DNA of 38,311 nucleotides from Ruminococcus sp. (lineage in GTDB: Bacteria; Bacillota; Clostridia; Oscillospirales; Acutalibacteraceae): contig JALELS010000022.1 of NCBI GenBank assembly GCA_022768065.1, positions 1 to 38,311 on the forward strand, given 5' to 3'. This document shows positions 3,745 through 30,455 of the stretch, in pieces. Within the stretch, counting starts at the first letter, position 1, and each line of letters opens with the position of its first letter. The notes under the pieces are model-generated. The model was not told the origin of the DNA. It saw only the letters and a program-made list of their open reading frames with translations, and did no database searches. A program made the translations under genes and the position numbers.

Positions 3745-3756
3745 CGAGGAACAAGG

Positions 3757-5016: not shown

Positions 5017-5070
5017 TATTAAAAATTCAGTAAATATTTAATTATTTATCTAAACGGGAAAGAAAGATTT

Positions 5071-6282: not shown

Positions 6283-6299
6283 TATTAAAAGGGTATATT

Positions 6300-7358: not shown

Positions 7359-7367
7359 GGTGGTAAA

Positions 7368-8504: not shown

Positions 8505-8561
8505 TACAGGCTAAAGTGAAAGGCATTGCTTAAATAATTTTTCTGTGGGAAGTGATAAATA

Positions 8562-10106: not shown

Positions 10107-10112
10107 ACGGTA

Positions 10113-11156: not shown

Positions 11157-11180
11157 TCGGTATTCCGAAAGGCAGATTTT

Positions 11181-12380
11181 ATGAAAATACTTGTTACGGG
11201 TTCAGCCGGATTTGTAGGTAAAAATTTTACAGAGGCGCTTAAAAATCTGCGCGACGGCAAGGACCGCACCCGTCCGTCGCTCTCGATTGACGAAATATTT
11301 GAATATGATGTTGATACGGACAAGTCACGGCTCTCGGAATTTTGCAGGGAGTGCGATTTTGTTTTCAACTTTGCGGGCGTCAACAGACCTAAAGACGACA
11401 GCGAGTTTATGAAGGGCAACTTCGGGTTCGCCTCGGAGCTTTTGGATACGCTCAAAAAGTACGGCAACCGTTGCCCCGTTATGCTCTCAAGCTCCATACA
11501 GGCGACGCTTGTCGGCAGATATGCAAATTCCGTTTACGGAGAGTCAAAGCTGCGCGGAGAAGAGCTGTTTTTTGACTATGCCGCAAAAACCGGAGCAAAG
11601 GTGTTCGTTTACCGTTTCCCGAATCTTTTCGGAAAATGGTGCAGACCGAATTACAACAGCGCCGTTGCGACTTTTTGCAATAACATCGCAAATGATTTGC
11701 CCATAAGAGTCGATAATGAAAAAACGGAACTTGAGCTTTTGTATATAGATGATCTTGTAAACGAAATGCTCGACTTACTTGAGGGGAAAGAGCATCACTG
11801 CGAATTTTCGGGTGCGGACGCTGTGCCGAAAAGCGACGGCAGATATTGTGTCGTTCCGGTAACATATCGCGTTACGCTCGGCGAAATCGTGTCGTTGCTT
11901 CACAAATTCGATGACCAGCGAAAGACTCTTATTATGCCGGAAATTCCGAACGGCAGTTTTGCGAAGAAGCTTTACAGCACGTATCTTTCATATCTTCCGA
12001 AAGAAAAAACCGCATTTGAGTTTAAGACAAATTCGGACGCACGCGGCAGCTTTACAGAGCTTTTAAAAACGAAAAACTGCGGTCAGTTCAGCGTTAATGT
12101 GTCGCTGCCGGGCATAACCAAAGGCGAGCATTGGCATAACAGCAAGTGGGAGCAGTTTATAGTCGTTTCGGGAAAAGGTCTTATACGCGAACGCAAAATA
12201 GGCACCGACAGCGTTATGGAATTTTATGTTTCCGGTGATAAGCCCGAATGTGTGCAGATGCTCCCCGGCTACACTCACAGCATAGTTAATTTAAGCGACA
12301 CGCAGCCGCTTGTCACATTGATGTGGGCAAATGAAATTTTTGACGCCGAACACCCCGATACATTCGGAGAAAAGGTTTAA
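11181..12380 (+). CDS. capF: CapF/FnlB/WbjC: SDR reductase with C-terminal cupin domain, UDP-L-FucNAc pathway
   Basis: A 399-residue two-domain protein. Residues 1 to about 280 are an extended SDR with GSAGFVG at 7-13 and the active-site segment VMLSSSIQATL..YANSVYGESKLRGE (Tyr-x3-Lys). Residues about 285-399 are a small cupin domain with the metal-binding GEHWHNSKWEQF motif. This fusion is diagnostic for CapF, in which the cupin part acts first as epimerase and the SDR part then reduces the 4-keto sugar with NADPH to UDP-L-6-deoxy-TalNAc. The gene lies 24 bases after capE and 29 bases before capG. Length and domain order match the family, and no defect is seen. Confidence 0.95.
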   Translation: MKILVTGSAGFVGKNFTEALKNLRDGKDRTRPSLSIDEIFEYDVDTDKSRLSEFCRECDFVFNFAGVNRPKDDSEFMKGNFGFASELLDTLKKYGNRCPVMLSSSIQATLVGRYANSVYGESKLRGEELFFDYAAKTGAKVFVYRFPNLFGKWCRPNYNSAVATFCNNIANDLPIRVDNEKTELELLYIDDLVNEMLDLLEGKEHHCEFSGADAVPKSDGRYCVVPVTYRVTLGEIVSLLHKFDDQRKTLIMPEIPNGSFAKKLYSTYLSYLPKEKTAFEFKTNSDARGSFTELLKTKNCGQFSVNVSLPGITKGEHWHNSKWEQFIVVSGKGLIRERKIGTDSVMEFYVSGDKPECVQMLPGYTHSIVNLSDTQPLVTLMWANEIFDAEHPDTFGEKV

Positions 12381-12409
12381 TACTGTCACACACGGCGGAG
12401 GTAATATAT

Positions 12410-13588
12410 ATGAAAAACGATTACAGGGATATTAAATTTAAGGATAACGGAAAATTAAAGCTCCTTATTATTGTAGGCACGCGTCCCGAAATAATAAGAC
12501 TTGCCGCGGTTATCGATAAGTGCAGAGAGTATTTTGACTGTATTCTCGCGCATACCGGTCAGAATTATGATTATAATCTGAACGGCGTGTTCTTTAAGGA
12601 TTTGGAGCTTTCCGACCCCGAGGTGTATATGGACGCCGTGGGGGCCGATCTCGGCGAGACGGTCGGAAATATCATAAACTGCTCGTACAAGCTGATGCAT
12701 GATATTCGCCCCGAGGCCCTTTTGATTCTCGGCGACACAAATTCCTGCCTTTCCGCAATAGCGGCGAAAAGGCTTCATATACCGATATTCCATATGGAGG
12801 CAGGCAACCGCTGCAAGGACGAGTGTCTGCCGGAGGAGACAAACCGCCGTATAGTAGATATTATTTCGGACGTGAATATGGCGTATTCCGAGCACGCGCG
12901 CCGCTATTTGCACGAGTGCGGTCTGCCGAAGGAGCGCACTTACGTAACGGGCTCACCCATGGCGGAGGTGCTTCACAGGAATTTGGAAAAAATCGAAAAC
13001 AGCGATATTTTAACAAAGCTCGGTCTTAAAAAGAAAAATTATATTCTTTTGTCGGCTCACCGCGAAGAAAACATTGATACCGAAAAGAATTTTATAAGCC
13101 TGTTTTCCGCAATAAACCGTCTTGCCGAAAAATATGATATGCCGATACTCTATTCGTGCCATCCGCGTTCAAAAAAACGCCTTGAGGAGAGCGGCTTCGA
13201 GCTTGATAAGAGGGTTATACGCCATGAGCCGCTCGGCTTCCATGATTATAACAGTCTTCAGATGAACGCCTTTGCCGTGGTTTCGGACAGCGGAACGCTG
13301 CCTGAGGAGAGCAGCTTCTTTACCTCCGTCGGAAAGAGCTTCCCCGCGGTGTGCATAAGGACTTCCACAGAGCGCCCCGAGGCTCTTGATAAAGGCTGTT
13401 TTGTGCTTGCCGGAATTGACGAAAAAAGCCTTCTCAGAGCGGTTACGCTTGCCGTGGATATGAATGAAAACGGCGATACGGGCATTCCCGTACCCGATTA
13501 TACCGACGAAAACGTAAGCTCAAAGGTAGTTAAGATTATCCAGTCTTACACAGGCATAGTAGACAAGATGGTCTGGAGAAAGTACTGA
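12410..13588 (+). CDS. capG: CapG/FnlC: UDP-L-FucNAc-forming 2-epimerase (WecB fold)
   Basis: A 392-residue non-hydrolysing UDP-N-acetylglucosamine 2-epimerase family enzyme. Signature stretches are GTRPEIIRLA near the start, HTGQNYD, LGDTNS, HMEAGNRC, LPEETNRR, LSAHREEN and SDSGTLPEESSFF, with RTSTERPEALDKG near the end. Its order after capE and capF shows it is the FnlC/CapG version, converting UDP-L-6-deoxy-TalNAc to UDP-L-FucNAc, not the UDP-ManNAc enzyme. Start ATG 12410 is preceded by a strong GGAGGTAA site. It is the last gene of the first polysaccharide cluster. Only weak inverted sequence follows, and the nrdR promoter begins 23 bases after the stop. Confidence 0.93.
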   Translation: MKNDYRDIKFKDNGKLKLLIIVGTRPEIIRLAAVIDKCREYFDCILAHTGQNYDYNLNGVFFKDLELSDPEVYMDAVGADLGETVGNIINCSYKLMHDIRPEALLILGDTNSCLSAIAAKRLHIPIFHMEAGNRCKDECLPEETNRRIVDIISDVNMAYSEHARRYLHECGLPKERTYVTGSPMAEVLHRNLEKIENSDILTKLGLKKKNYILLSAHREENIDTEKNFISLFSAINRLAEKYDMPILYSCHPRSKKRLEESGFELDKRVIRHEPLGFHDYNSLQMNAFAVVSDSGTLPEESSFFTSVGKSFPAVCIRTSTERPEALDKGCFVLAGIDEKSLLRAVTLAVDMNENGDTGIPVPDYTDENVSSKVVKIIQSYTGIVDKMVWRKY

Positions 13589-13611
13589 TAAAGCGCCGCG
13601 TCAAAATACGC

Positions 13612-13640
13612 TTTACATTGTAAATTTTGTTTGTTATAAT
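13612..13640 (+). promoter_or_regulatory. Sigma-A promoter of nrdR
   Basis: TTTACA (13612-13617) is separated by exactly 17 bases from TATAAT (13635-13640). It stands between the capG stop and the nrdR start, giving nrdR its own transcript. Confidence 0.75.
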
Positions 13641-13678
13641 ATTCGTAGATTAAAAATAACTATTGGATGTGATTTGCC

Positions 13679-14134
13679 GTGAAGTGCCCTTACTGCGGAT
13701 ACGAAGAGAGCAAGGTAATAGATTCGAGACCCACCGACGAGGGCGAGAGAATACGCCGCCGCCGCGAGTGCATCAAGTGCGGTAAGCGCTTTACTACATA
13801 CGAAGTTATTGAAAGCGTGCCGATACTTGTCGTTAAAAAGGACAAGTCGCGCGAGGTGTTTGACCGAAATAAGCTTTTGGGCGGTATGATGCGCGCCTGC
13901 GAAAAACGTCAGGTTTCTATGGACACGCTGGAGCGCGCCGTTGACGATATTGAGGCAAATCTTCAAAATTCGCTCGACCGTGAGGTTTCGTCTATGCACA
14001 TAGGCGAGCTTGCCATGCAGAAGCTTAAAGATATCGACGAGGTTGCGTATGTCAGGTTCGCTTCGGTTTACAGGCAGTTTAAAGATATAAACGCCTTTAT
14101 GGACGAGCTGTCGCAGCTTCTCAGAAAAAGATAA
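13679..14134 (+). CDS. nrdR: Transcriptional repressor NrdR
   Basis: A 151-residue protein of normal NrdR length. The N-terminal zinc ribbon has Cys pairs C3/C6 and C31/C34 (CPYC ... CIKC) with the RRRR basic patch between them. Residues about 49-139 form the ATP-cone domain ([13 protein letters not shown] ... [13 protein letters not shown]). NrdR senses ATP/dATP and represses ribonucleotide reductase genes through NrdR boxes. The start is GTG 13679, because the peptide begins MKCPYCG as in all family members. A GGATGTGAT site lies 7 bases upstream. The gene has its own promoter and a following terminator, so it is a single-gene unit unrelated to the capsule cluster. No ribonucleotide reductase genes are in the window. 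Confidence 0.98.
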
Positions 14135-14170
14135 AATCCGTTTTACGGCAACAGTATACGTGCTTTTTCG

Positions 14171-14205
14171 GCAGAGACTTCGTTTTTCGGGGTCTCTGCT
14201 TTTTT
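14171..14205 (+). terminator. Rho-independent terminator after nrdR
   Basis: An 8-bp perfect stem GCAGAGAC/GTCTCTGC (14171-14178 with 14192-14199) is followed by six T residues. Confidence 0.9.
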
Positions 14206-14211
14206 ATGCGG

Positions 14212-14241
14212 TTGACAAGCCGAGACATTTTAATATATTAT
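14212..14241 (+). promoter_or_regulatory. Sigma-A promoter of the secreted transglutaminase-like gene
   Basis: A perfect TTGACA (14212-14217) has an 18-base spacer to TATTAT (14236-14241). TATATT two bases further upstream is an alternative -10 with 16-base spacing. It begins directly after the nrdR terminator. Confidence 0.75.
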
Positions 14242-14273
14242 AAAAGTGACAATTCGAGAATAAGGTGATTGTA

Positions 14274-15722
14274 TTGAAAAAAGCATTAAGTGTAGTTTTG
14301 GCGGTCATTTTGACCGTGCCGTTTTTGTCGCTCGTGTCGGGCGCGCTGAATGAAAAAACGCTTTATGCCGATATGCCGGCAGAGTGGGCTGTAAGCTACG
14401 ACCCGAGAACGGATGTTTCCGATTTGGTTCGGGAGGGAGAAAACAAAGCATTGCCGTTTTTGTCGGACGGAGCGGATACTCCGTATACATTTTACACATT
14501 CCTGAATTCAAATCAGAAAGCGGTTTATAACGCGCTTAAAGAAAAGCTGTTTGAAAGCTCGGTTGAGGTTACCTTGCCGTCGCCTCTTACGTGGAGCGGC
14601 ACCGACACAAGCGTGCCGAGCGACATAAAGTCCGCTCTGTCGGAGGCTGTTTCGGGCGGAATATCCGCACTTTGCGACGATTTCCCGATGATCTTCTGGA
14701 TAAACGGATACAGTATAAGCTACGGTTATTCTTACCGTCACGGTGACAGCGGCTACATTTTTACAATTACTTCGGTTACGGTAAAACCAAGAATAAATAC
14801 AAACGCCTATGCCGATATGAATAAGGTAAAGCAGGATTACAATGATATGGCGGCTGTTGTTGCCGACGTCGAAATAAAGGGCGCAACGCGTTACGAAAAG
14901 GTGAAGTTCATACACGACTTTATCTGCAAACGAGTCGAGTATGATGAAAATTTTGAAATACCTACGGCGCACGAACCGACAAGTGTATTTTTGTCTCCGT
15001 ACAAAACCGTGTGCGAGGGATACAGCGAAGCTTTTAAAATTCTCTGCGACAAAGCCGAAATACCGTGTGTAATAGCGGTGGGCACTTCAAACGGCGGAGG
15101 TCACGCTTGGAATTACGTTAAAATGGAGGACGGCAAGTGGTACGGCGTAGACTGCACATTTGATGATCAGGGCAGTATTCTGTATGACTATTTTCTCGTG
15201 GGAACAGCCAGCGGAAATAAGTATTTCAATACGTCCGAGGCCTTCGGCAGCAGCCATACCGAGACGGGAAAACGTTACGGCGGCAACTTTACGCTGACAT
15301 ATCCCACCGTATCGGAAAATGCCTATTCGCCTGTTGTACCGGGAATAAACTCCGGTGCAACGGTGAACGAAAAGTCAAAGCTTTTATATATCACAAACGG
15401 CGCGAGCGTAAATTCGGCGGTTTATATGCAGAGCGGTTACAGCTTTGTTTCCGGCGGCAATAAAACCGGCTCGCTCTTCACGGTCAAAAATACTTCGTCG
15501 GGTGCAAGCACGGGCTACACCGTAATTATGCGCGGAGATGTTGTGCCGAGCGGCAAGGTGGACGGCTCCGATTTTGACGCCGTAATTAAGCACTCGGTGG
15601 AAGAGCAAAAACTCGAAAACGGTTCAAACGAATATTTGGCTGCCGATGTAAACGGCGACGGAGTTGTGGATTTGTTTGACGCCGCCGAAATAGATTTGAT
15701 AAAAGCGGGTAAGGCTTCATAA
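14274..15722 (+). CDS. Secreted transglutaminase-like protein with dockerin-like C-terminus
   Basis: A 482-residue exported protein. TTG 14274 is chosen because AAGGTGAT lies just upstream and the product then starts MKKALSVVLAVIL, a normal signal peptide (residues 1 to about 24). Another start, GTG 14265, would lie inside the ribosome site. Residues about 205-300 are a transglutaminase-like cysteine protease fold with the triad C247 (VCEGYS), H277 (GHAWN) and D293 (GVDCTFDD). Residues about 415-480 hold two dockerin-like EF-hand repeats, one degenerate (KVDGSDFDAVIKHS) and one good (DVNGDGVVDLFDAAEIDLI). Related domains occur in ruminococcal extracellular proteins. The dockerin may bind a cohesin scaffold or simply calcium, and no cohesin is visible here. 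The gene is monocistronic with its own promoter and terminator. Substrate is unknown. Confidence 0.88.
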   Translation: MKKALSVVLAVILTVPFLSLVSGALNEKTLYADMPAEWAVSYDPRTDVSDLVREGENKALPFLSDGADTPYTFYTFLNSNQKAVYNALKEKLFESSVEVTLPSPLTWSGTDTSVPSDIKSALSEAVSGGISALCDDFPMIFWINGYSISYGYSYRHGDSGYIFTITSVTVKPRINTNAYADMNKVKQDYNDMAAVVADVEIKGATRYEKVKFIHDFICKRVEYDENFEIPTAHEPTSVFLSPYKTVCEGYSEAFKILCDKAEIPCVIAVGTSNGGGHAWNYVKMEDGKWYGVDCTFDDQGSILYDYFLVGTASGNKYFNTSEAFGSSHTETGKRYGGNFTLTYPTVSENAYSPVVPGINSGATVNEKSKLLYITNGASVNSAVYMQSGYSFVSGGNKTGSLFTVKNTSSGASTGYTVIMRGDVVPSGKVDGSDFDAVIKHSVEEQKLENGSNEYLAADVNGDGVVDLFDAAEIDLIKAGKAS

Positions 15723-15778
15723 AGCCGTAACCCGAAAAGACAAGATGTAAAAACCGACACCGAAAAATCGCATAAAGC

Positions 15779-15818
15779 GGGGGCGCCCAAAGGCTTTAGA
15801 CCTAAAGCGCCCCTTTTT
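15779..15818 (+). terminator. Rho-independent terminator after the transglutaminase-like gene
   Basis: The outer stem GGGGCGC/GCGCCCC (15780-15786 with 15807-15813) continues in an inner CTTTA/TAAAG pairing with a bulge. Five T residues follow. Confidence 0.88.
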
Positions 15819-15831
15819 CTTTAATAAACAC

Positions 15832-15863
15832 TTGACAAGTCCCGTTTTTGGGACTAATATTAT
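15832..15863 (+). promoter_or_regulatory. Promoter of the phage-like lysis cassette, with palindrome in the spacer
   Basis: A perfect TTGACA lies at 15832-15837. A -10 candidate TAATAT (15855-15860) has 17-base spacing. TATTAT (15858-15863) matches the consensus better but at 20 bases. Between the two elements lies a perfect inverted repeat, AGTCCC-GTTTTT-GGGACT (15838-15855), an unusual place for a palindrome and a plausible operator for a second regulator. Confidence 0.7.
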
Positions 15864-15872
15864 ACGAGTAAG

Positions 15873-15886
15873 CGAACAAATGTTCT
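15873..15886. promoter_or_regulatory. LexA/SOS box (GAAC-N4-GTTC)
   Basis: CGAACAAATGTTCT fits the Gram-positive LexA (DinR) consensus CGAAC-RNRY-GTTYC at all but the last base. The core GAAC/GTTC half-sites are perfect (15874-15877 and 15882-15885). It lies 10-15 bases downstream of the -10 region, where bound LexA would block transcription. This suggests the lysis cassette is induced by DNA damage. Confidence 0.8.
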
Positions 15887-15888
15887 AC

Positions 15889-15927
15889 AAATCAACGCCC
15901 GAAATCTGTTTTTTCGGGTGTTGATTT
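15889..15927 (+). promoter_or_regulatory. Structured leader hairpin upstream of the sigma-like gene
   Basis: Two 16-base arms (15889-15904 and 15912-15927) pair over their whole length with one G-U pair and a 7-base loop. No U tract follows, so it is not a plain terminator. A second, weaker pairing of GGATGAC with GTCGTCC encloses the rest of the leader up to the ribosome site at 15978. The 5' leader is therefore folded and could attenuate or protect the transcript. Confidence 0.6.
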
Positions 15928-15989
15928 GGTTTTGGGATGACGGTTTCGGTGCGGCTTACCGATAATGTCGGTCGTCCGAAAGGAGAGTT

Positions 15990-16376
15990 ATGGACGAAAA
16001 AATACTTGCGGAATTAAGCCTTGACGAGTACATCTATCTCACGGAAAATCTTGAGGTCATAGAGCACGGCGGAGACAAAAATGCGGCGGCATATATTTTG
16101 GCGCGCAAAAATTCCGTCGTTAAGAAGCTTGTCGGGCTTGTACTTCAAACCGAGCTGACGCAGGAGGAACGCGATTTTTTGCTTGCACGGCATATTAAAG
16201 GACTTAACAAATCCGAAATCGCGCGACACAACAATGCTTCGCGCAAATATGTTGACAGAGTGCTTTTGAGTGCCGAAAAAAAGCTCTATGCCTACCTTAA
16301 ATATCCCGTGATGATGCGTTTCTCGCTCATATGCCCACCAGAAAATATATTTGACGAAATAAAGGAGTATTTATGA
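15990..16376 (+). CDS. Small sigma-70 region 4-like HTH regulator (phage late activator type)
   Basis: A 128-residue basic protein. The middle part, from about LTQEERDFLLARHIKGLNKSEIA to RKYVDRVLLSAEKKL, has the shape of sigma-70 region 4 (helix-turn-helix recognising -35 DNA). No region 2 is present. Proteins like this (ArpU, Xpf or PBSX sigma-like factors) drive late genes of Gram-positive prophages. AAAGGAG lies 5 bases before ATG 15990. The gene is the first of five in the cassette, and its stop overlaps the start of the next (ATGA). It may turn on a second promoter or act elsewhere on the chromosome. Family naming is by pattern, with no catalytic residues to check. Confidence 0.75.
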   Translation: MDEKILAELSLDEYIYLTENLEVIEHGGDKNAAAYILARKNSVVKKLVGLVLQTELTQEERDFLLARHIKGLNKSEIARHNNASRKYVDRVLLSAEKKLYAYLKYPVMMRFSLICPPENIFDEIKEYL

Positions 16377-17701
16377 CGAAAATCATTTCCATCTATATTT
16401 TTTTAGAGGACGAGCCGTCCGTTGAGTGCATAACGGCAGGGAACAGCGCCGAGCATAACGCGACTACGCTCAAATTCATTCTCGAGAGCACCTTTACCGA
16501 CGAATTTAAATATTATCTCGACTTCGTACTGCCGAACGGGAAAATCTTACGCACGGATTATCTTCCGCTTAATAAGGAAGATGAAAATTCCGTGTCGTTT
16601 GATGTGCCAGCGTCAGTCACAAAATACGGTACGGCAGAATGTTGTCTGAACGCCGTTAAAATCGACGAAAACGGCCTCACAACCGAGGTTATGAAGCCGA
16701 AAAACGTCATATTGTATTTTAACACACTTGCCGACGCCGACGGGGCTCTTCTCGCCGAATACGATTTCTCGGTAAATACGATGCTTGAAAATATAAAGAA
16801 CGGCGTGTTTAAGGGCGAGAAAGGCGACAAGGGTGACAGCGGAAAAGACGGCAGCAACTATGTTTTGACAAAAGAGGATAAGCAAGAGATTGCGGCTCTG
16901 ATAAATAAGAGCACATACGGTCTTCCGTATACGCGCAGAGCTTCGGGAGAAAACACGCTGACGCTTACGGATTCTCTTGCCATGCCGTTTAAGGGCTTTA
17001 CGGTATACGGCAAAACTTCGGTTACGGGTTCCGTCACAGGTACTGCGGAGCCTGCCTCTTCCGTAAAAATAAGCGGTGTGTCATCCGTAAAAATCGGAAT
17101 AAACGGCGCGGAGCAAACGGTAAATACGGGCAGCGAGCTTTTTTCTGCCGGAGACTACGCGGACAAAGCCGATGTCATAAGCGGAATTTTCACAAGAAAA
17201 ATCGGCAAATATGCTCTTACGGGAACCGCCCAGGCGGTACTTGCAAAATCATATACAAGCGGCGGCGTGACTTTAAACAGGATATATACTCCGACCCCCG
17301 TCGGTGCAAAAATGGTTCGCGGAACCTGCCTTCCCGGTTACTGTACGCATTTTGAGGTGTTCTCGGATAATATCACAAGCGACGAAGAGCTCGGAGCACG
17401 CATTTCGGCGGGTAAAAATTATATCGGCGTAATATACGGTTACAGCAACGACGTAATATATTTTTTGACTACGCTTTCCGTAGACGGGCTCAAATCGTAT
17501 CTTCAGTCGCAGTATGCCGCAGGAACGCCCGTTACGGTATATTACCCGTTGGCGTCCGAATCGGAGGAAAAGATTACGCCGGTGACGCTGAATTCTGTTT
17601 TTCCGACCACCGAAATTTCGGTTTCGGAGCCGGGCGGTAAATTCGATGTATGCTATTGCGCAGATATATCCGAGGCTGTAAAGCGACTTGAAGAAAAGTA
17701 A
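16373..17701 (+). CDS. Phage baseplate/tail-fibre-like protein with collagen-like stretch
   Basis: A 442-residue protein. Residues 1 to about 135 look like a beta-sandwich domain (ATTLKFILEST ... YYLDFVLPNGKILRTD ... SVSFDVPASVTKYG), similar in style to the N-terminal domain of BppU-like baseplate proteins. A short Gly-x-x collagen-like run (GEKGDKGDSGKDGS) follows near 145-160. The rest is beta-rich, Gly/Ser/Thr-rich sequence typical of trimeric fibre tips, ending in a Cys-containing tail. It lacks a signal peptide. In phages such a protein would sit at the tail tip and contact the host surface. Here it stands without other tail genes, directly ahead of the lysis genes. AAGGAG precedes ATG 16373, and the 4-base overlap with the sigma-like gene implies coupled translation. 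Confidence 0.7.
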   Translation: MTKIISIYIFLEDEPSVECITAGNSAEHNATTLKFILESTFTDEFKYYLDFVLPNGKILRTDYLPLNKEDENSVSFDVPASVTKYGTAECCLNAVKIDENGLTTEVMKPKNVILYFNTLADADGALLAEYDFSVNTMLENIKNGVFKGEKGDKGDSGKDGSNYVLTKEDKQEIAALINKSTYGLPYTRRASGENTLTLTDSLAMPFKGFTVYGKTSVTGSVTGTAEPASSVKISGVSSVKIGINGAEQTVNTGSELFSAGDYADKADVISGIFTRKIGKYALTGTAQAVLAKSYTSGGVTLNRIYTPTPVGAKMVRGTCLPGYCTHFEVFSDNITSDEELGARISAGKNYIGVIYGYSNDVIYFLTTLSVDGLKSYLQSQYAAGTPVTVYYPLASESEEKITPVTLNSVFPTTEISVSEPGGKFDVCYCADISEAVKRLEEK

Positions 17702-17722
17702 AAATAACGAAAGGAAAATTAT

Positions 17723-18603
17723 ATGGAAGCTAAATATAAGGGAATAGACGTGTCAAAGTGGCAGGGCGATATAAATTGGGAAAAGGTCCGTGCTTCGGGC
17801 GTTGAATTCGCCATGTTGCGCGCAGGCTTCGGCAGATGCCAAGGTCAAAACGATACCTCGTTTGAAAGAAATTACCGCGAGGCAAAGAAAAACGGCATAC
17901 TTGTGGGCGCATACCATTACAGTTATGCAAAAACCGCTTCGGACGCGGAAAAAGAGGCTGAGTATTTTCTCTCGCTTATATCGGGAAAAAGCTTTGAATT
18001 TCCCGTGGCATTCGACATTGAGGACAACTCGCAGAAAAATCTGTCACGCGAAGAAATAAGCAATATTATTGAGGCTTTTTGCGGCAGTCGGAAAAAGCCG
18101 GATATTTTGTTTCGGTTTATGCAAATTTGTGGTGGCTCAATAATAAAATCTCGGACAGAGTAAAGGAACGCTATGACATCTGGCTCGCACAGTGGGCGGA
18201 TACCCCGTCTTACGGCGGAAAATACGGTATGTGGCAGTATACGTCCTCGGGTAAAACGGACGGCATATCGGGAAATACGGATATGGACTTATCCTTTAAA
18301 GATTATCCGAATATAATGAGAGTGAACGGACTTAACGGCTTTTCAAAGGACGCCGCAAAAAATACCGAAGCCGTAAAAAGCGGCGGATTTTCACCGCGTC
18401 AGACCGTGGCGCTTTGCAATACGCCCGTATTTTCTTCGGCTTATTCGCAGTCGCCGTCGGTAAAGAAGTCCGGAACCTATTACATCTACGACGGAATCGA
18501 GATAAACGGCAGGTATCGCATCACATCTTCCGCAAGTTTGGCTCTTAAAAAGCCCGTCGGAAAAAACGTCACGGGATTTGTAAACGTCGGGGATATAAGG
18601 TGA
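17723..18603 (+). pseudogene. GH25 muramidase (phage-type endolysin), frameshifted at a T5 run
   Basis: Two overlapping frames together encode one lysozyme. Frame A (17723-18163) gives the N-terminal GH25 barrel: GIDVSKWQGDINW, then catalytic D98/E100 in VAFDIED. Frame B, readable from 18079, gives the rest: EKAGYFVSVYANLWW, WLAQWADTPS, MWQYTSSG and NTDMDLSF. It ends in a Ser/Lys-rich SH3-like wall-binding tail (TYYIYDGIEINGRYRITSS). One added T in the run 18076-18080 joins them as ...EAFLRQSEKAGYF... into a normal protein of 293 residues. The gene would cleave peptidoglycan beta-1,4 bonds. Either the copy is inactivated or the base is missing through assembly error. No slippery heptamer is present, so programmed frameshifting is unlikely. 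Confidence 0.88.
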
Positions 18604-18612
18604 GGCGCCGTT

Positions 18613-18879
18613 ATGAGTGAAAACGAGCTTTTTGAGCACCGAATCAAAACTCTTGAAAACGACGTCAAAATACTGTACGGAAAGGTGAATACCTTTGCGA
18701 TAAATCAGGCGGAAGAAAATACAAAGCTCGATAATTTGCTTTTGTCCGTCGGCGAACTGAAAGAGAGCATAAGCGAAATTAAACGCAGACCTTCGGCATT
18801 TTGGGATAAGCTCATATTTGCGCTTATCGGTGCGGTCGGGACTGCGATAGGCTATGCGGTTATCGGTTTTATAAATTAA
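18613..18879 (+). CDS. XhlA-like membrane protein of phage lysis module
   Basis: An 88-residue protein with a long charged coiled coil (residues about 5-60, ENELFEHRIKTLENDVKILYGKV ... ELKESISEIKRR when read in parts). One C-terminal transmembrane segment follows (FALIGAVGTAIGYAVIGFI). This is the layout of haemolysin XhlA from PBSX-type prophages, which works with a holin and an endolysin at the membrane during lysis. The ribosome site AGGTGAGG precedes ATG 18613, and the spacing to both neighbours is about 10 bases. Its place between the muramidase and the holin matches the xhlA-xhlB-endolysin order of Bacillus phages in reversed form. Confidence 0.82.
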   Translation: MSENELFEHRIKTLENDVKILYGKVNTFAINQAEENTKLDNLLLSVGELKESISEIKRRPSAFWDKLIFALIGAVGTAIGYAVIGFIN

Positions 18880-18889
18880 AGGGGGAAAT

Positions 18890-19141
18890 ATGGACGTATT
18901 GTCATATATAATAAACCGCGCGCTGGTTTTGATACCGGTGCTCAATATATTAGGGATGATTTTAAAGACGCTCGAAAAAATACCGGATAAGTTTATACCG
19001 CTTATACTTTTGGCGGCAGGTATTTTGGGGAGCATCGCTCTGATGGGTGTTTCGGCGGATTCCGTGATACAGGGAGTGCTCGTTACGGGAGCTGCCGTTT
19101 ACGGCAATCAGGTGGTAAAGCAGTTAAAAAAGGATAATTGA
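18890..19141 (+). CDS. Phage holin (Hol44-like, small two- to three-span)
   Basis: An 83-residue hydrophobic protein. Spans lie at about 4-26 and 34-52, with a third, weaker hydrophobic stretch at 58-75, and the C-terminus is basic (VVKQLKKDN). The pattern 'PVLNILGMILK...IPDKFIPLILLAAGILG' is typical of small Firmicute holins of the Hol44/phage_holin_5 kind. Holins open the membrane so the muramidase reaches the wall. AAAGGGGG lies 5 bases before ATG 18890. It ends the cassette, and a strong hairpin follows its stop by 10 bases. Confidence 0.85.
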   Translation: MDVLSYIINRALVLIPVLNILGMILKTLEKIPDKFIPLILLAAGILGSIALMGVSADSVIQGVLVTGAAVYGNQVVKQLKKDN

Positions 19142-19150
19142 TTTTTAAAA

Positions 19151-19181
19151 GGGGCTGTAAAAACTTGTGTTTTACAGCCCC
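19151..19181. terminator. Bidirectional terminator between the lysis cassette and the ATPase gene
   Basis: A perfect 12-bp stem GGGGCTGTAAAA/TTTTACAGCCCC (19151-19162 with 19170-19181) has a 7-base loop. The U tract is better on the minus strand (TTTTAAAAAT beyond 19151), so it serves the ATPase gene ending at 19197 and probably also stops plus-strand transcripts. Confidence 0.88.
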
Positions 19182-19196
19182 CGTATTTATGTGTGG

Positions 19197-20264
19197 TTAT
19201 CCGAGCATTTCTTTTATCAGGTCGTCTGTCAGCCTGTTAAGAGCGCCGAAATCCATTTCGCTTATATAGCAGGTTTCAAGCTCATCGTGTATATCCTTTG
19301 CCTCTTTAAGTATGTCAACGCATTTAGGCAGCAGCAGTTTAATATTTTCTTTATAGAAACACAGCTCGCTGTCATATTCGCGCAAAATATTTTTATCGCA
19401 GTATTTATCTGCGGAAAGGCGCTTTGCACCTTTGATGTTTACCGGGAATGCGTCACAGGTGGTCACATAGGCAAGGCGTTTTTCGGGGATTAAAACGTGC
19501 GCGGTCTTTTCGGGAAAGAGCACATCTCGGCAAACAATGACGTCATACCCGATAGAAGCCGAGTAACGGGCAATGTCGGTAAGCATTTTTTCGGTTATTC
19601 CCGATTCGTCGCGTATAACGGTTATGTCGTCGGCGAGATTTTTTACGGTATTTGTAAATGTTATAATCCCTTTCGGAGTAACTCCCGAGAGGAAACGGTT
19701 TTCGATTCTTCCTTTTTTATCGGGAACAGGCTCAAATTGTAAAAGAATATCACCCGTAAGCTCGTGAAGTTTTTTCTTTTTTAATGCCGTTTTATATATT
19801 TCCGACATATTTTGCTTTAATGCGGTTGCGGCACAAAGAAGCGATGAAACCCTCTTGTGGCAAAAGCCGTTTTCGTTTGTCAGGCGTATAATGTCTTTGC
19901 TTTTCCTTTTGAGATTTTCTCTGTTCCAAAGCGCGGCAACATTAACTATCTGCTCCGCGGTGCCGGCAAATACGGGCTCAACCACGTGCGGAGCGGTTCC
20001 GTCGCAAATCGAGCAATACTTTTCCGGAATGAATACACCGTCAAGCGAATCGGGGTCCGATGAGCACCAAAGCTTTTCGCAGAAAATGCCGCGTTTCAAG
20101 GCTTCGTCCGCGGCCTTTTTCATAAGTCCGGATTTTCCCGTGCCGGGACCGCCCTTTATTATAAAAGTGCTGTACGGCGTTGTGTGCTCGGTAAGGTCAT
20201 AAAAAAGCGAGTAAAAACCGTTTCTGGTATTTGTGCCGAGAAAAAAGGATATGTCGTTTTTCAT
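19197..20264 (-). CDS. P-loop ATPase of the PRK06851 type, function unknown
   Basis: A 355-residue cytoplasmic protein. A Walker A motif GGPGTGKSG lies at residues 38-46. A second, partial nucleotide-binding half probably begins near 180-215, as in the two-domain PRK06851 ATPases of Firmicutes. Several Cys residues (CEKLWCSS, YCSICDG) are conserved-looking but form no clear zinc site. No membrane segments or DNA-binding domain are visible. Start ATG is confirmed by AGGAGGG 7 bases upstream. It stands alone between two terminators, so it is a single-gene unit. A hallmark of its family is a link to spore-forming Firmicutes, but its job is not established. Confidence 0.78.
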   Translation of the reverse strand: MKNDISFFLGTNTRNGFYSLFYDLTEHTTPYSTFIIKGGPGTGKSGLMKKAADEALKRGIFCEKLWCSSDPDSLDGVFIPEKYCSICDGTAPHVVEPVFAGTAEQIVNVAALWNRENLKRKSKDIIRLTNENGFCHKRVSSLLCAATALKQNMSEIYKTALKKKKLHELTGDILLQFEPVPDKKGRIENRFLSGVTPKGIITFTNTVKNLADDITVIRDESGITEKMLTDIARYSASIGYDVIVCRDVLFPEKTAHVLIPEKRLAYVTTCDAFPVNIKGAKRLSADKYCDKNILREYDSELCFYKENIKLLLPKCVDILKEAKDIHDELETCYISEMDFGALNRLTDDLIKEMLG

Positions 20265-20327
20265 TTTTTGCCCTCCTAATAATTTATCCGTGTTATTATA
20301 TGCGGCAAAACGAAAAATGATAAATAA

Positions 20328-20366
20328 AAAAACAAGGGTTGTAAATTTTTTACAATCCTTGTTTTT
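20328..20366 (-). terminator. Terminator after the plsC-like gene
   Basis: Seventeen-base arms (20328-20344 with 20350-20366), reading AAAAACAAGG.. and ..CCTTGTTTTT, pair with one G-T pair and a short loop. On the minus strand this ends in a U tract, after the acyltransferase stop at 20398 and before the ATPase gene. Confidence 0.88.
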
Positions 20367-20397
20367 GCGTAATTTTATATGGCGACGTCAAGTCGGT

Positions 20398-21663
20398 TTA
20401 CAGGTATTCGCGGCCCGTAAGCACTCTGTAAAGCGCAAAGTATTTTACCGATGAACGGCGTATGTGACTTCCGACCTCATAGTAAAAACCGTTGGACGTT
20501 GTGAAATAGAGCTTTGTTTCGCCGCCCATCGACATTTTAACTATATCCGAGAGCAAAAAGACTTTTTTGCCTTTCTTTTCGTCGGTAAATTCGAGCCTGT
20601 CGGAGTAAAGACTCAGCGTGCAGTTATCCGAGAACAGCTCTTTCGTCTCGTTTTCCTCTATGCAATTGAGTATCTGCTTTTCGTCGGTGGTTATGGGTTT
20701 TTCCTTAAATGAACGCCATAATTCGAGATTTTCTTTTACATAGCTTTTTTGCCATTTGTCCCAGTCGAGAACATTGTCAAATACGAGAGAGTCGCCCTCA
20801 AAAAATCCGTATTCGTTAATGTGCATTTTATAGCCGCATTCACATGAAAATTCGTTGCCGTGTGAATGGGTTTTTCCGATTGTATGGCACTTGGGGCAAA
20901 GGTAGAGGATAGTCTCAAGATCCTCTGCGAGAGCGCGTCCTTTATATCTGTGCGGTTCCTTTCTCTGCCGGTCGTAGGCGTTTATGTATATATCGCGTCT
21001 TATCGCCTCGTTGATTTCGTCTACGGACATCTTTTGAAGCTCTTCCGGCATATATTCGCGAACCACGCTGCCGCGCATTCTTCCGCGGCGCGAGTGCTTT
21101 GCCCATCTCGGATCCTTAAAGTATCCGCCGACGGTGCGGAACGTGATAAGACCCGCGCCGCTGTCTTTGACGAGCTTTCCGGTACGCGGAGAGACAAATC
21201 CCGTTTCGCCGTTTATGGAGCAGTACCCCTCGGCGTGTATACAAACGCTGACGCCGTTTCTTACGGATTCCGCCATCATTTCCATCGTCTTTTCGGAATC
21301 GGCGCCGCGTCTTTTCGGAATGGGATTAACGCAAAATTTTATAAACTTTCCCCATGCGCCCATTCTGAGAAGATGGTCGCTCGTCACGAAGCGCAGATAC
21401 GGTTTAAACGTAAGCGCTTCGTAAACGGGGTCAAGCATGGTGGTGTGATTTGATATGAGGATAAAACTCTTGTTTTTCGGTTTATATACCTTGCCTCTGT
21501 AATTCGAGACAAGCTTTACTATCCAGCCGAATAAAAATTTTACGGTGAAATAAATGCCGTGGGCGCGTTTAATATGAGCCAGCGCTTCGGGAGTTTCGTT
21601 ATTTGCTTTCTCCGTCGCTCTTTTGCTGCTCTGATTTTTGCTGCTCTGATTTTTGCTGCTCAT
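20398..21663 (-). CDS. PlsC-like 1-acylglycerol-3-phosphate acyltransferase with zinc-ribbon tail
   Basis: A 421-residue protein. ATG at 21663 is preferred to the upstream in-frame ATG at 21687, since AGGAGG lies 9 bases before it. The acyltransferase block I motif is NHTTMLD (H-x4-D), and a block III-like HAEGYCS follows. Block III normally reads PEGTR, so this is a divergent member. Near residues 255-280 a zinc-ribbon is visible (CPKC ... CECG), not part of classic PlsC. A beta-rich PH-like C-terminal region ends in GREYL. It should transfer acyl chains to lysophospholipid at the membrane. The first 65 bases overlap the end of the acyl-CoA ligase gene in another frame, so the two are translationally linked. 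Confidence 0.85.
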   Translation of the reverse strand: MSSKNQSSKNQSSKRATEKANNETPEALAHIKRAHGIYFTVKFLFGWIVKLVSNYRGKVYKPKNKSFILISNHTTMLDPVYEALTFKPYLRFVTSDHLLRMGAWGKFIKFCVNPIPKRRGADSEKTMEMMAESVRNGVSVCIHAEGYCSINGETGFVSPRTGKLVKDSGAGLITFRTVGGYFKDPRWAKHSRRGRMRGSVVREYMPEELQKMSVDEINEAIRRDIYINAYDRQRKEPHRYKGRALAEDLETILYLCPKCHTIGKTHSHGNEFSCECGYKMHINEYGFFEGDSLVFDNVLDWDKWQKSYVKENLELWRSFKEKPITTDEKQILNCIEENETKELFSDNCTLSLYSDRLEFTDEKKGKKVFLLSDIVKMSMGGETKLYFTTSNGFYYEVGSHIRRSSVKYFALYRVLTGREYL

Positions 21664-23362
21664 ATTTTGCGGCCTCCTCTTCTTCAAGCTTCCTGTACGC
21701 TACCTTGCCTACAAGAGTCTTGGGAAGCTCCGTGCGGAATTCTATTTCGCGCGGCATGGCGTATTTGGATATATTTTTGCGGCAGTGCTCAAGTATTTCT
21801 TCTTTAATCTTTTCGCTCGGTTCAACTCCGGGGCGCAAAACGACAAACGCTTTGACCTTATGCATCTTGTACGGGTCCGGAATGCCTATGGCGCATGAGA
21901 GCAGTACGTCGGGATGAGCGTCTATGGTGTTTTCAACCTGCGACGGATATACGTTTATGCCCGAAACTATGATAAGACGTTTAAGTCTCTGCTTGAAGTA
22001 GATAAATCCGTCCTTATCCATGGTGCCTATATCGCCCGTGTGAAGCCATACTCTGCCGTCGGCGTGTGTACGCAGCGTTGCGGCGGTCTCGGCGGCGTTG
22101 TTGAGATAGCCTTTCATAACGGTAGGACCGCTTATGCAAATTTCACCCTCTGTGTCGGGCGGAAGCTCGCTGTCGTCCTTCGGGTCAACTATCTGATAGT
22201 AAACGTCCGGGTAAGGTATTCCTATGCTGCCCTCGCGGAAGAAGTCGCGCGGGGTAAGGCAGGACGCCGTAACACATTCGGTAGTGCCGTAGCCCTCTCT
22301 TATCTGTACCTTTGCGTTGTGATCCTTTAAAAATGCGTCGACTTTCTTTTTAAGCTCAACCGAAAGAGAGTCGCCGCCGCAGAATACACCGCGCAAAAAT
22401 GAGAGGTCAACTCCGTCGAGACCCTCCGTGCGAAGCAGTGCCTCAAAGAGCGTGGGAACGCCGGGGATTGCATTGGGCTTGTTTTTCTTTATCATTTTCG
22501 CATATGTCTTAACGGTGAACTGCGGAACGAGTATGCAGGTACCTCCGTTAATAAGCGGCGTGTGAATTCCTACGCCGAGACCGAAGCCGTGGAACAAGGG
22601 CATAACCGAGAGCATACGAAGACCCTCCATGGTAAAGCCGGCCGCCGCGGCAACCTCCATACCGAGTGCGTTCATATTGAGGTTTGTGAGGAGTATTCCC
22701 TTTGTGGTTCCGGTTGTGCCGCCGCTGAAAAGTATAGCCGCGGTGTCGTCGGCTTTGGGGAATTCATCGGGCAGAGTTTCGTTTTTGCCTGCCGCTATAA
22801 AATCATTCCAACGAACGACGTTTTCGCTGTCGGGAAGCTCCGGCGGCTTTTTCTTCAGCGTGAGCGGATACAAAATATTAAGCGGAAAGCGTAATTCATC
22901 CTGTATTCTCGCTACGATTATTTTAACGGGTCTGCCGAGATCTTTTACCGCCTGCTCAACCTTGTCGTAAAACATATCCACAACAAGTATGGCTTTGCTG
23001 TCGGTGTTTTTGAGATAAAACGTAATTTCGCCCGCCGCCGAGAGAGGATGTATCATAGTGGGAATTGCGCCTATGCGGTTGAGCGCGTAAAAGCTGTCAA
23101 CGCCCTGCGGAGTATTTGGCATACAAATGGTTACCGTTTCTCCCTTTTTTATACCGAGCGCCTTAAAAGCCTTTGCGGTTCTGTCGATTTTTTCTATGAA
23201 TTTTTCATAGGTCGTTCCTTTTCCCTGGAACTCGTAGGCATTTACCTGCGGATGGGTCTTACCTGCGTTTACAACAGCTTCATACATTGAAATTTGGGGG
23301 TATTCGAGCGTTTTCGGAATGTCCCCGTAGAATTTCAGCCATGGTGCATTAGGTGTATTCAT
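21599..23362 (-). CDS. AMP-binding acyl-CoA (fatty acid) ligase, FadD-like
   Basis: A 587-residue adenylate-forming enzyme. The phosphate-binding loop LFSGGTTGTTKG lies at residues about 211-222. Further motifs are GYGTTE (A5), WLHTGDIG (A7), KQRLKRLIIVSG (A8) and GKVAYRK with the A10 lysine near the end. The substrate is probably a long-chain fatty acid, judged by the FadD-like length and motifs. The C-terminus ends in EQQKS repeats encoded by a 15-bp tandem repeat that also encodes the start of the acyltransferase. AAGGA precedes ATG 23362. With the following acyltransferase it may recycle or scavenge fatty acids into phospholipid. The AraC-type gene upstream is the likely regulator. Confidence 0.92.
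   Translation of the reverse strand: MNTPNAPWLKFYGDIPKTLEYPQISMYEAVVNAGKTHPQVNAYEFQGKGTTYEKFIEKIDRTAKAFKALGIKKGETVTICMPNTPQGVDSFYALNRIGAIPTMIHPLSAAGEITFYLKNTDSKAILVVDMFYDKVEQAVKDLGRPVKIIVARIQDELRFPLNILYPLTLKKKPPELPDSENVVRWNDFIAAGKNETLPDEFPKADDTAAILFSGGTTGTTKGILLTNLNMNALGMEVAAAAGFTMEGLRMLSVMPLFHGFGLGVGIHTPLINGGTCILVPQFTVKTYAKMIKKNKPNAIPGVPTLFEALLRTEGLDGVDLSFLRGVFCGGDSLSVELKKKVDAFLKDHNAKVQIREGYGTTECVTASCLTPRDFFREGSIGIPYPDVYYQIVDPKDDSELPPDTEGEICISGPTVMKGYLNNAAETAATLRTHADGRVWLHTGDIGTMDKDGFIYFKQRLKRLIIVSGINVYPSQVENTIDAHPDVLLSCAIGIPDPYKMHKVKAFVVLRPGVEPSEKIKEEILEHCRKNISKYAMPREIEFRTELPKTLVGKVAYRKLEEEEAAKYEQQKSEQQKSEQQKSDGESK
21625..21660. repeat. 15-bp tandem repeat in the ligase/acyltransferase overlap
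   Basis: GCTGCTCTGATTTTT occurs twice in full (21625-21639 and 21640-21654), and a third unit starts at 21655 before diverging. It is read in two frames, as EQQKS in the acyl-CoA ligase tail and as SSKNQ in the acyltransferase head. The unit is a multiple of three, so both frames survive copy-number change. Confidence 0.9.
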
Positions 23363-23409
23363 ATTAAGTCCTTTCCGTGTTTTATGTATTATTATTTTTT
23401 ATATGGATT

Positions 23410-24195
23410 TTATATACTGCGGAACTTTTTCGGTGTGGTTCCGTAGAAGCCTTTGAATGTGCGTATAAAATTATTTATATCCGAAAAGCCTATTTTGCGG
23501 CAGATTTCGTTTATGCTGAGGTTTGTGGTCATTAAAAGCCTGTTGGCGTTTACAAGACGTACCGCGGTGAGATACTGCTTCGGACTGAAGCCCGAAAAGC
23601 TCTTAAACGAGTGGCTCAGATACGGCGGCGACAAAAAAGCGCTTTCGGCGAGCTTTTCAACGGTTATTTCTTCGCCGTAGTGCACGTCGATATACTCGCG
23701 TATTTTTTGCATAGACTTGTTTTGACGCTGTGCGTTTCCGAACGGCGATGGGTTCAGCTTATATATTTCAAGCATAAGCAGTTTAAAAAGTACCGCGGCG
23801 GTGTTGCCGACCGTGCCGTAAGGACTTCGGCACTCTTTTTCAAGCTGTGCGCACACTTCCTCCGCAACCCTGCTTTCCGAAAAATCAAAAATGTGATATG
23901 AGCTTTTGAACTTCTTTACAAAAAACGACGAAATGCTTGAAGTTCCGAGAATTTTTTTGACCTCCTCGCTTGCGAGAGAAAAAGAGTAATATTTAAAAGG
24001 TGCTTTTGTTACAGACATTGTTTTGCCGCCGACGGAAGATATGATGAGCATTTGACCGCCCGACAGAATAAAGTCCGTATCTCCGCTTTTTATTACGGCT
24101 TCGCCGTCTTTTGCATATATAAAATCGAATACCGATTCGGGCAAAAGCTGTGAAGGCGTTATGTCTTTTTTTTGCGAGGATGATAATACCTGCAT
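23410..24195 (-). CDS. AraC/XylS family transcriptional regulator
   Basis: A 261-residue regulator. The N-terminal ~150 residues form a cupin-like effector domain (FIYAKDGEAVIKSGDTDFILSGGQMLII when read in parts). The last ~95 residues hold the two AraC helix-turn-helix units: EEITVEKLAESAFLSPPYLSHSF and NLSINEICRKIGFSDINNFIRTF, followed by GTTPKKFR. The C-terminal copy is close to the consensus 'GF.D..YF.R.FK...G.TP'. A strong AAGGAGG lies 6 bases before ATG 24195. It sits 47 bases upstream of the acyl-CoA ligase on the same strand, so it is probably co-transcribed and controls that unit. The ligand is unknown, and a fatty acid derivative is a guess from context. Confidence 0.93.
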   Translation of the reverse strand: MQVLSSSQKKDITPSQLLPESVFDFIYAKDGEAVIKSGDTDFILSGGQMLIISSVGGKTMSVTKAPFKYYSFSLASEEVKKILGTSSISSFFVKKFKSSYHIFDFSESRVAEEVCAQLEKECRSPYGTVGNTAAVLFKLLMLEIYKLNPSPFGNAQRQNKSMQKIREYIDVHYGEEITVEKLAESAFLSPPYLSHSFKSFSGFSPKQYLTAVRLVNANRLLMTTNLSINEICRKIGFSDINNFIRTFKGFYGTTPKKFRSI

Positions 24196-24482
24196 TGTTT
24201 ACCTCCTTTCCGCAGATTAAAAAGCAAATTTTACATATTTTTTGCCCAGACATAATATATCATATAAAATCGCAAAATGCTACTGTTTTTTTAAAATATT
24301 ATAATTTAGTATAATTCCGTATACTGCGTTCCCCGCAGCGAAGCCGCAAAACGGGCGTTTGTGTGGAACAAAACACTTTGAAATAAGTTTGTCCCCATAG
24401 TGTGAGGCTTTGCATTTCGGAACATAAAAAATATGAAAATCGACGAAAACGCCCTTTTTCGCCGTTATAGCGCCAAATCCGA
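24196..24482. other. Intergenic region between divergent AraC and LCP genes, no gene seen
   Basis: This is the upstream half of the longest gene-free stretch (24196-24617). It is AT-rich near 24200-24310, where the minus-strand promoter of the AraC gene must lie, although no clean -35/-10 pair stands out. At about 24350-24465 an imperfect inverted repeat is visible (GGGCGTTT near 24353 with AAACGCCC near 24447). No RNA gene or coding potential with a ribosome site was recognised. Confidence 0.55.
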
Positions 24483-24511
24483 TTGACACTACTTAGTTTT
24501 TGTTGTAAAAT
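24483..24511 (+). promoter_or_regulatory. Sigma-A promoter of the LCP/glf operon
   Basis: A perfect TTGACA (24483-24488) has a 17-base spacer to TAAAAT (24506-24511). The LCP start at 24618 leaves a leader of about 100 bases. An apparent open frame from TTG 24483 would begin on the -35 box and has no ribosome site, so it is not the true start. Confidence 0.82.
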
Positions 24512-24617
24512 AAATAAAATTATAAGGGGCAGAATATACTTGCCCGACATTCGGTATTTTTTAAAAACCGGCACTTACGCACAAACGACATTTTTAATCT
24601 GTTGCATAGGGGTAGTT

Positions 24618-26003: not shown

Positions 26004-26055
26004 TAAATTCAAATAATACATTTTTTAAGTGCGTTTCGGCGCAGGAGGAAAAATT

Positions 26056-27153: not shown

Positions 27154-27173
27154 GCGAGGAACGGTCAAAGGCT

Positions 27174-28232: not shown

Positions 28233-28261
28233 AAAAATAAATCCGAAAGGCTGTGAAAAAT

Positions 28262-29329: not shown

Positions 29330-29345
29330 TGTGGAGGGCAAACAG

Positions 29346-30446: not shown

Positions 30447-30455
30447 GGAGTCAAA

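What the first reader, a model, noticed from the sequence alone, without database searches (positions are those of the whole stretch)
15832..19181. SOS-linked, stand-alone phage lysis cassette with a fibre-like protein
A perfect GAAC-N4-GTTC box sits at a TTGACA promoter ahead of five tightly spaced genes: sigma-like regulator, baseplate/fibre-like protein, GH25 muramidase, XhlA-like protein and holin. The set is closed by a terminator on both sides and has no capsid, portal, terminase, integrase or sheath. This could be a prophage remnant, or a domesticated unit for damage-induced lysis that releases vesicles or toxins. The inclusion of a receptor-binding-type protein in a lysis unit is the unusual part.
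Basis: partly seen in the sequence, partly recalled or inferred. Interest (0 to 1): 0.78.

Follow-up and report, generated by a model that had tools for sequence, protein, structure and literature searches.

The report
Damage-linked release unit for domesticated capsids
A gut bacterium carries phage-derived genes for bursting the cell behind what looks like a DNA-damage switch, and elsewhere on its chromosome a conserved set of phage-derived genes for building shells and packing DNA, so the two together look like a home-made system for releasing packaged bacterial DNA.

Summary
In detail: LexA-type box, promoter, sigma-like regulator (SIG), fibre-like protein (FIB), GH25 lysin, XhlA-like protein and holin, 15832-19181. 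In this genome the lysin is frameshifted; a sister species has it intact. The unit is no stray prophage remnant. In the genus (taken to contain Candidatus Fimenecus) full-length SIG occurs once in 38 of 39 genomes, each time followed by a GH25 lysin, at recurring chromosomal sites. A LexA-type box lies 5' of SIG in 31 of 38; the same box type lies at recA in 30 of 30 loci examined and at dinB. FIB is in 28 of 39: conserved N-terminus, variable C-terminus. The missing capsid is in trans: a stand-alone head/packaging module (TerS, TerL, portal, protease, capsid, three connector-like genes) whose capsid gene is in 36 of 39 genomes of the genus and 229 of 398 of the family. The two loci diverge in step. 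Best reading: the regulator/fibre/lysis locus of a dispersed gene-transfer-agent-like system, wired to SOS. A two-locus GTA was published in January 2026 for Faecalibacterium (PMC12946183), so this is a new variant of a known kind. Particles, DNA packing and transfer are inferred, not shown.

The parts
15832..15860 (+). sigma-70-like promoter TTGACA-N17-TAATAT; a palindrome AGTCCC-N5-GGGACT lies in the spacer
   Evidence: TTGACA and a -10-like stretch stand in the same place before the box in most relatives (by eye)
15874..15885 (.). LexA-type box GAACAAATGTTC
   Evidence: conserved 5' of SIG in 31 of 38 units; same box type at 30 of 30 recA loci and at dinB of this genome
15888..15928 (+). 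17-pair leader hairpin, attenuator-like
   Evidence: leader z -5.73; 22 of 23 leaders folded have z below -1.5
15990..16376 (+). SIG, 128 aa, sigma-region-4/Q-like regulator
   Evidence: weak profile matches; full-length in 38 of 39 genomes of the genus
16373..17701 (+). FIB, 442 aa, fibre-like (receptor-binding-type) protein
   Evidence: no family match; relatives in 28 of 39 genomes with conserved N-terminus, collagen-like linker in many, variable C-terminus
17723..18603 (+). GH25 lysin gene, frameshifted here (pieces 17723-18163 and 18079-18603)
   Evidence: PF01183 on both pieces; intact 293-aa copy in MT835647
18613..18879 (+). XhlA-like protein, 88 aa
   Evidence: PHROG hemolysin 1.1e-7
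18890..19141 (+). holin, 83 aa
   Evidence: PF16079 2.3e-20; phrog_1129 4.1e-24
19151..19181 (+). terminator-like hairpin closing the unit

Best explanation
The block is the regulator/fibre/lysis locus (locus II) of a dispersed, vertically inherited gene-transfer-agent-like system of the window's genus. Locus I, elsewhere in the same chromosome (G000:C25, about 42.4-48.4 kb), holds TerS, TerL, portal, prohead protease, major capsid and three connector-like genes. Proposed working: DNA damage inactivates LexA; the promoter at 15832 fires; some transcripts pass the leader hairpin and make SIG, which raises expression of its own operon and perhaps of locus I; locus I makes small heads that pack chromosomal DNA; FIB sits on the particle as receptor-binding protein; XhlA, holin and GH25 lyse the cell and free the particles. 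Shown here by sequence: both loci, their conservation, their joint divergence, the LexA-type operator. Inferred: that LexA acts there, SIG's targets, DNA packing, FIB's place, lysis, any DNA transfer.
For: Capsid gene in 36 of 39 genomes of the genus, 26 of 27 of the more complete ones; SIG in 38 of 39; GH25 after SIG in all 38 units, holin matched in 34 and XhlA-like in 27. Head module gene order conserved; 17 of 38 pieces fetched (36 genomes) match all eight genes, the others being cut by contig ends or having small genes too divergent to match. Distances between capsid/TerL/protease and SIG/FIB-N/GH25/holin: seven pairs tested, r 0.72-0.90, and 0.27-0.75 after allowing for RecA, n 16-17. 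LexA-type box in 31 of 38, at 30 of 30 recA loci. Purifying selection on the cassette. Published two-locus Faecalibacterium GTA with lysis and fibre genes on locus II.
Against: No particle, DNA or transfer data for this genus. Locus I has no LexA box (best 3-5 mismatches in 31 leaders) and its leader motif is not shared by the cassettes, so common control is unproved. 7 of 38 units lack a good box. FIB is missing in 11 of 39 genomes that all have the capsid. G204, G207 and G226 have the cassette but no capsid hit (G207 is 96% complete). In the wider family FIB-domain hits do not follow the capsid (18 of 38 against 229 of 398 overall; counted). In this genome the lysin is frameshifted, and TerS was read without a usual start codon at the place where relatives have one, so this copy may be failing or misassembled. 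Mantel tests overstate significance.
Confidence: 0.7

Rival explanations
1. A domesticated SOS autolysis unit that works alone: damaged cells burst to free DNA, vesicles or proteins; the head module is a separate domesticated relic with its own role.
For: SIG-lysis is more constant than FIB (38 against 28 of 39); no shared control motif with the head module; three genomes with cassette but without capsid hit.
Against: A conserved receptor-binding-type protein has no use in plain autolysis; the two loci diverge in step beyond RecA; the published two-locus GTA precedent.
Confidence: 0.17
2. A tailocin-like killing particle: heads or necks with FIB kill relatives, as suggested for PBSX-type particles.
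For: PBSX-family TerL and XkdF-like protease; variable fibre tails.
Against: Baseplate J found in only 2 of 39 genomes and Dit in 1 of 39; intact-looking packaging genes point to DNA. Sheath and tube families were not searched.
Confidence: 0.07
3. A prophage remnant, or the late end of a resident prophage or satellite that uses a helper phage.
For: All parts are phage-derived; three genomes have portal hits over the curated cut-off, possibly prophages.
Against: Single, recurring chromosomal sites within subclades, beside named host genes where tested; 38 of 39 genomes; low dN/dS. I did not scan every flank for phage genes.
Confidence: 0.06

Closest known systems
FpGTA of Faecalibacterium prausnitzii (PMC12946183; abstract, sections 9, 10, 26 and passages read)
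   Same: Two separate chromosomal operons: one for terminase, portal and capsid, one for fibre/receptor-binding and lysis proteins; no tail seen; widespread in its genus.
   Different: There locus II also has baseplate genes, and locus I ten ORFs in 10.5 kb; here locus I has eight genes in about 6 kb, Baseplate J is absent in 37 of 39 genomes, and locus II starts with a sigma-like regulator behind a LexA-type box. The words LexA and promoter do not occur in that main text, though it says in passing that GTAs are SOS-inducible. Homology to FpGTA proteins could not be tested: no sequence held.
RcGTA, DsGTA and CcGTA of Alphaproteobacteria (passages of PMC9638019, PMC6473078, PMC9632790)
   Same: Dispersed loci with separate lysis and fibre genes; GafA, a direct activator with short sigma-like regions; LexA required for RcGTA (indirectly) and in silico LexA sites at the DsGTA cluster; CcGTA helps recipients survive DNA damage.
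   Different: Unrelated host group; those have tail genes; here activator-like gene, fibre and lysis share one operon with a LexA-type box at its promoter. I tested no homology between SIG and GafA.
PBSX of Bacillus subtilis (recalled, and as mentioned in PMC12946183)
   Same: PBSX-family TerL (TIGR01547, 2.4e-60), XkdF-like protease (weak).
   Different: PBSX is one cluster with a contractile tail (recalled); here head and lysis are apart and no baseplate was found in most genomes.

Membership tests
Gene transfer agent | Encoded by the cell's chromosome and inherited vertically | tested here: met
   36 and 38 of 39 genomes for capsid and SIG; distances follow RecA (r 0.49-0.82); recurring chromosomal sites
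Gene transfer agent | Capsid, portal and terminase genes | tested here: met
Gene transfer agent | No replication or integration genes with the structural genes | tested here: inconclusive
   none seen among the module genes or the named neighbours; flanks were not all scanned
Gene transfer agent | Lysis module for release | tested here: met
   lysis genes with SIG in 38 of 39 genomes; their activity is not shown
Gene transfer agent | Packs random host DNA and can transfer it | not testable with these tools
   needs particles from a culture
FpGTA (Faecalibacterium) | Two separate operons, one with fibre and lysis genes | tested here: met
   window block and G000:C25
FpGTA (Faecalibacterium) | Baseplate genes | tested here: not met
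   Baseplate J (A1) in 2 of 39 genomes, not in G000
FpGTA (Faecalibacterium) | Sequence homology to FpGTA capsid and portal | not testable with these tools
   FpGTA sequences not held under a name
LexA (SOS) regulon | Operator as at recA of the same genus | tested here: met
   31 of 38 units; 30 of 30 recA loci
LexA (SOS) regulon | LexA binding and induction by damage | not testable with these tools
   bench test needed
Prophage | Inserted element with phage genes around the block | tested here: not met
   recurring sites by McsB/Clp-ATPase, IF-2/NusA, leucine-tRNA ligase or glycogen genes, ten representative flank proteins named
Tailocin / contractile particle | Sheath, tube and baseplate | tested here: inconclusive
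   Baseplate J 2 of 39, Dit 1 of 39; sheath and tube not searched in the genus

The most novel reading that the evidence does not exclude
A core-genome gene transfer agent of gut Clostridia placed directly under LexA: badly damaged cells lyse through a two-lock switch (LexA box, then a leader terminator that a sigma/Q-like regulator helps its own operon to pass) and hand packaged chromosome pieces, on particles with clade-specific fibres, to kin as repair templates; the capsid half of the system is spread over most genera of the family.
Probability: 0.35. Interest if true: 0.9.

Novelty: new variant of a known kind. Interest (0 to 1): 0.74.

Why it matters
If right, it ties DNA damage directly to release of DNA-carrying particles in common, mostly uncultured gut bacteria, and offers candidate genes for GTA-like packaging that PMC12946183 saw in several gut families but traced to genes only in Faecalibacterium. 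It makes testable, outside Alphaproteobacteria, the idea that GTAs donate repair templates after damage (shown for Caulobacter, PMC9632790). It also warns that some 'phage' records and 10-kb 'viral' contigs are host modules: MT835647, filed as a bacteriophage, is host chromosome.

Tried and rejected
Prophage remnant: rejected on distribution and sites. Shared control motif: a CTATGGGTGAAAGG-like motif stands 5' of TerS in 25 of 31 leaders by score, but not consistently at cassettes. LexA box at locus I: best 3-5 mismatches. Tail genes in the genus: Dit (PF05709) 1 of 39, Baseplate J 2 of 39. PDB profile searches: FIB N-terminus best 0.046 (coagulation factor XIII), not believed; capsid none at 0.1. 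PHROG 'tail fiber' matches of FIB relatives (up to 15 of 29 for one family, none for the window's own FIB) may come from collagen repeats (Pfam Collagen at E up to 1 in 15 of 28; at 0.001 in 1 of 29). Rfam: nothing over threshold. Pattern scans with FIB and SIG in IMG/VR and with SIG in GTDB contigs gave no relative. Leader covariation on an automatic alignment of 18 chosen leaders: five pairs only. MT835647: the paper likely behind it, PMC8361208, does not show that accession, so its origin from purified particles is not confirmed. Search mixed five terms, needed any two, and listed 15 of 1,076 papers, so it is a weak test of absence.

Papers: PMC12946183 abstract, sections 9, 10, 26 whole, and passages; PMC6473078, PMC8361208, PMC9632790, PMC9638019 passages; all others search listings only.

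Full report
CHECK. The block reads as described, with two amendments. The lysin gene is split by a frameshift into two overlapping pieces; the same gene is one 293-aa frame in MT835647. Both halves are under strong constraint (dN/dS 0.015 and 0.063), so the break is recent or an assembly error. The fibre-like protein has no family match of its own; its nature is inferred from relatives.

WHERE IT COMES FROM. The window is a whole contig (C19) of a 1.92-Mb assembly, 96.8% complete. Its genus, 'g1', has 39 genomes here. One of them, G200, has a 30,962-base contig with a capsid gene, the length of DVGI01000035.1, Candidatus Fimenecus excrementavium, also found by capsid; I therefore take g1 to be the genus containing that species (inference). 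MT835647, filed as 'UNVERIFIED: Bacteriophage sp.' from human faeces, is chromosomal DNA of a sister species: 18.8 kb aligns with window 15630-34450 at 89% identity.

DISTRIBUTION. FIB relatives occur in 28 of 39 genomes. All 28 loci have SIG before and GH25 after FIB; holin was matched in 26 and XhlA-like protein in 19 (L066 and L068 lack a match to both). A SIG profile finds a full-length copy (E at most 1.9e-30) once in 38 of 39 genomes; G225, 85% complete, has only a weak generic hit. The 10 FIB-less genomes with SIG have GH25 after it in 10, XhlA-like and holin in 8 each, and in 8 a 77-88-aa gene between SIG and GH25. The 11 FIB-less genomes are those with the more distant capsid (52-66% identity to ours; 68% or more in FIB-bearing genomes that have it), so FIB marks one part of the genus.

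SITES. Flanking genes put the 28 FIB-bearing units in groups: 11 share a left flank with McsB and a Clp ATPase, five share IF-2 and NusA (L070 shares one further gene with these), three leucine-tRNA ligase, two glycogen genes, two (L066, L068) another left flank with the right flank of the first group; the window and L078 stand alone, L067 and L074 are on short contigs. Names come from NCBIfam for ten representative proteins. I did not scan every flank for phage genes.

SOS BOX. A box with at most one mismatch to CGAACAAATGTTCG lies 5' of SIG in 21 of 28 FIB-bearing and 10 of 10 FIB-less units (distance to SIG read from the map). Of the 7 without, four have nothing (L066, L068, L072, L077) and three a degenerate site with four mismatches (L073, L075, L079). 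Of 37 strong recA loci, 30 were fetched, and 30 of 30 carry a one-mismatch box near the start of recA; dinB of the own genome has one over its promoter. In two other genera an exact or near box stands within about 130 bp of a SIG-type gene (L052, L377; distances by my reading); in L051 the nearest is about 0.8 kb away, and in L043 and L049 none.

LEADER. Of 23 leaders between box and SIG, 22 fold with z below -1.5 against 100 dinucleotide shuffles each; most show one long stem followed by a T-rich stretch, as an attenuator would. An automatic alignment of 18 chosen leaders supports only five pairs, four with a change on both sides. SIG's weak likeness to phage Q antiterminators (E 0.0015, below the curated score) suggests, but does not show, that it helps its own operon past the hairpin.

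FIB. Across 29 proteins (28 plus MT835647) the first ~145 residues align, with 13 invariant columns, then collagen-like repeats in many, then unlike tails; total lengths 249-712 aa as read. Two relatives end in GDSL-lipase-type domains and one in a phosphodiester glycosidase domain. That is the build of a receptor-binding protein.

CAPSID IN TRANS. A Pfam portal search hit 21 of 39 genomes, 3 over the cut-off, and led to G000:C25. There lie TerS (PF03592, 2.2e-11), TerL (TIGR01547, 2.4e-60), portal (phrog_30703, 2.6e-116), a protease-like protein (XkdF-type, weak, 0.0016), capsid (PF25209, 3.7e-17) and three small genes in neck position without family match. The capsid gene is in 36 of 39 genomes; G204, G207 and G226 lack it; G205 and G218 give two partial hits at contig ends, G235 two hits. 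Of 38 pieces fetched from these 36 genomes, 17 match all eight genes, and the order is the same throughout; 15 of 38 lack a match to the last gene, several with an unmatched frame of like size in its place, others at contig ends. After it come other genes on either strand; no further module gene was recognised. In the family, 229 of 398 genomes (82 of 135 genera) have the capsid, all but three with one match by my reading. IMG/VR holds 38 relatives, 35 on contigs under 19 kb; the two read in full besides L184 (L154, L182) add LysM, gp25-like, Baseplate J and gp48-like baseplate genes (Pfam on L182), which our genus mostly lacks.

LINK. Seven cross-locus pairs were tested: r 0.72-0.90 and, allowing for RecA, 0.61 (capsid-FIB), 0.72 (TerL-FIB), 0.75 (protease-FIB), 0.57 (capsid-SIG), 0.51 (capsid-GH25), 0.45 (TerL-GH25), 0.27 (capsid-holin), n 16-17. 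Without that correction the lowest cross-locus value was 0.53 (TerL-holin). In G206 and G219 the two loci seem to flank the same glycogen genes. Against: in the wider family, FIB-domain hits at 1e-4 do not follow the capsid (18 of 38, against 229 of 398 overall); of six hits outside the genus at 2e-20 or better, five do (counted).

MECHANISM AND NOVELTY. I favour an SOS-released GTA-like particle. The Faecalibacterium work shows that a two-locus system of this layout makes ~40-nm particles without visible tails, with about 9 kb of DNA (PMC12946183). It saw GTA-like packaging in Ruminococcaceae, Oscillospiraceae and Christensenellaceae but found the genes in Faecalibacterium only; 'Fimenecus', 'LexA' and 'promoter' do not occur in its main text, though it notes that GTAs are SOS-inducible. 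LexA links to GTAs are known from Alphaproteobacteria (passages). My print searches listed no other report of such a system in these bacteria; subscription papers and preprints are not held. New here: a LexA-type operator and sigma-like regulator on the fibre/lysis operon, the reduced head module, and the family-wide capsid. Not shown: particles, DNA content, transfer, SIG's targets.

Noticed in passing
L052 4974-5639; L377 5741-6490; L043 11204-12022: Lysins of the related units in other genera end in dockerin domains (Pfam for L052 and L377; by eye for L043), an odd fusion for a lysis enzyme.
   Followed up: partly
window 14265-15722: Transglutaminase-dockerin gene beside the unit; relatives of it also adjoin the cassette in L073, L075 and L079.
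   Followed up: no
L012 (MT835647.1) 1-18777: Public 'Bacteriophage sp.' record that is host chromosome, collinear with the window.
   Followed up: yes
window 15838-15855: Palindrome AGTCCC-N5-GGGACT inside the promoter spacer, also in MT835647; could be a second operator.
   Followed up: no
window 33038-34234: Second GH25-type gene (398 aa, minus strand), outside the unit.
   Followed up: no
L226 (G000:C25) upstream of TerS: Conserved CTATGGGTGAAAGG-like leader motif before the head module in 25 of 31 leaders by score; its reader is unknown.
   Followed up: partly
L111 (G000:C31:54666) and L109 (G000:C25:102511): Two further exact LexA-type boxes of the own genome, one near an integrase-like gene (by eye), one with no clear SOS gene.
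   Followed up: no
L154, L182: Compact virus-like clusters with capsid and baseplate genes but no sheath or tape-measure gene recognised.
   Followed up: partly
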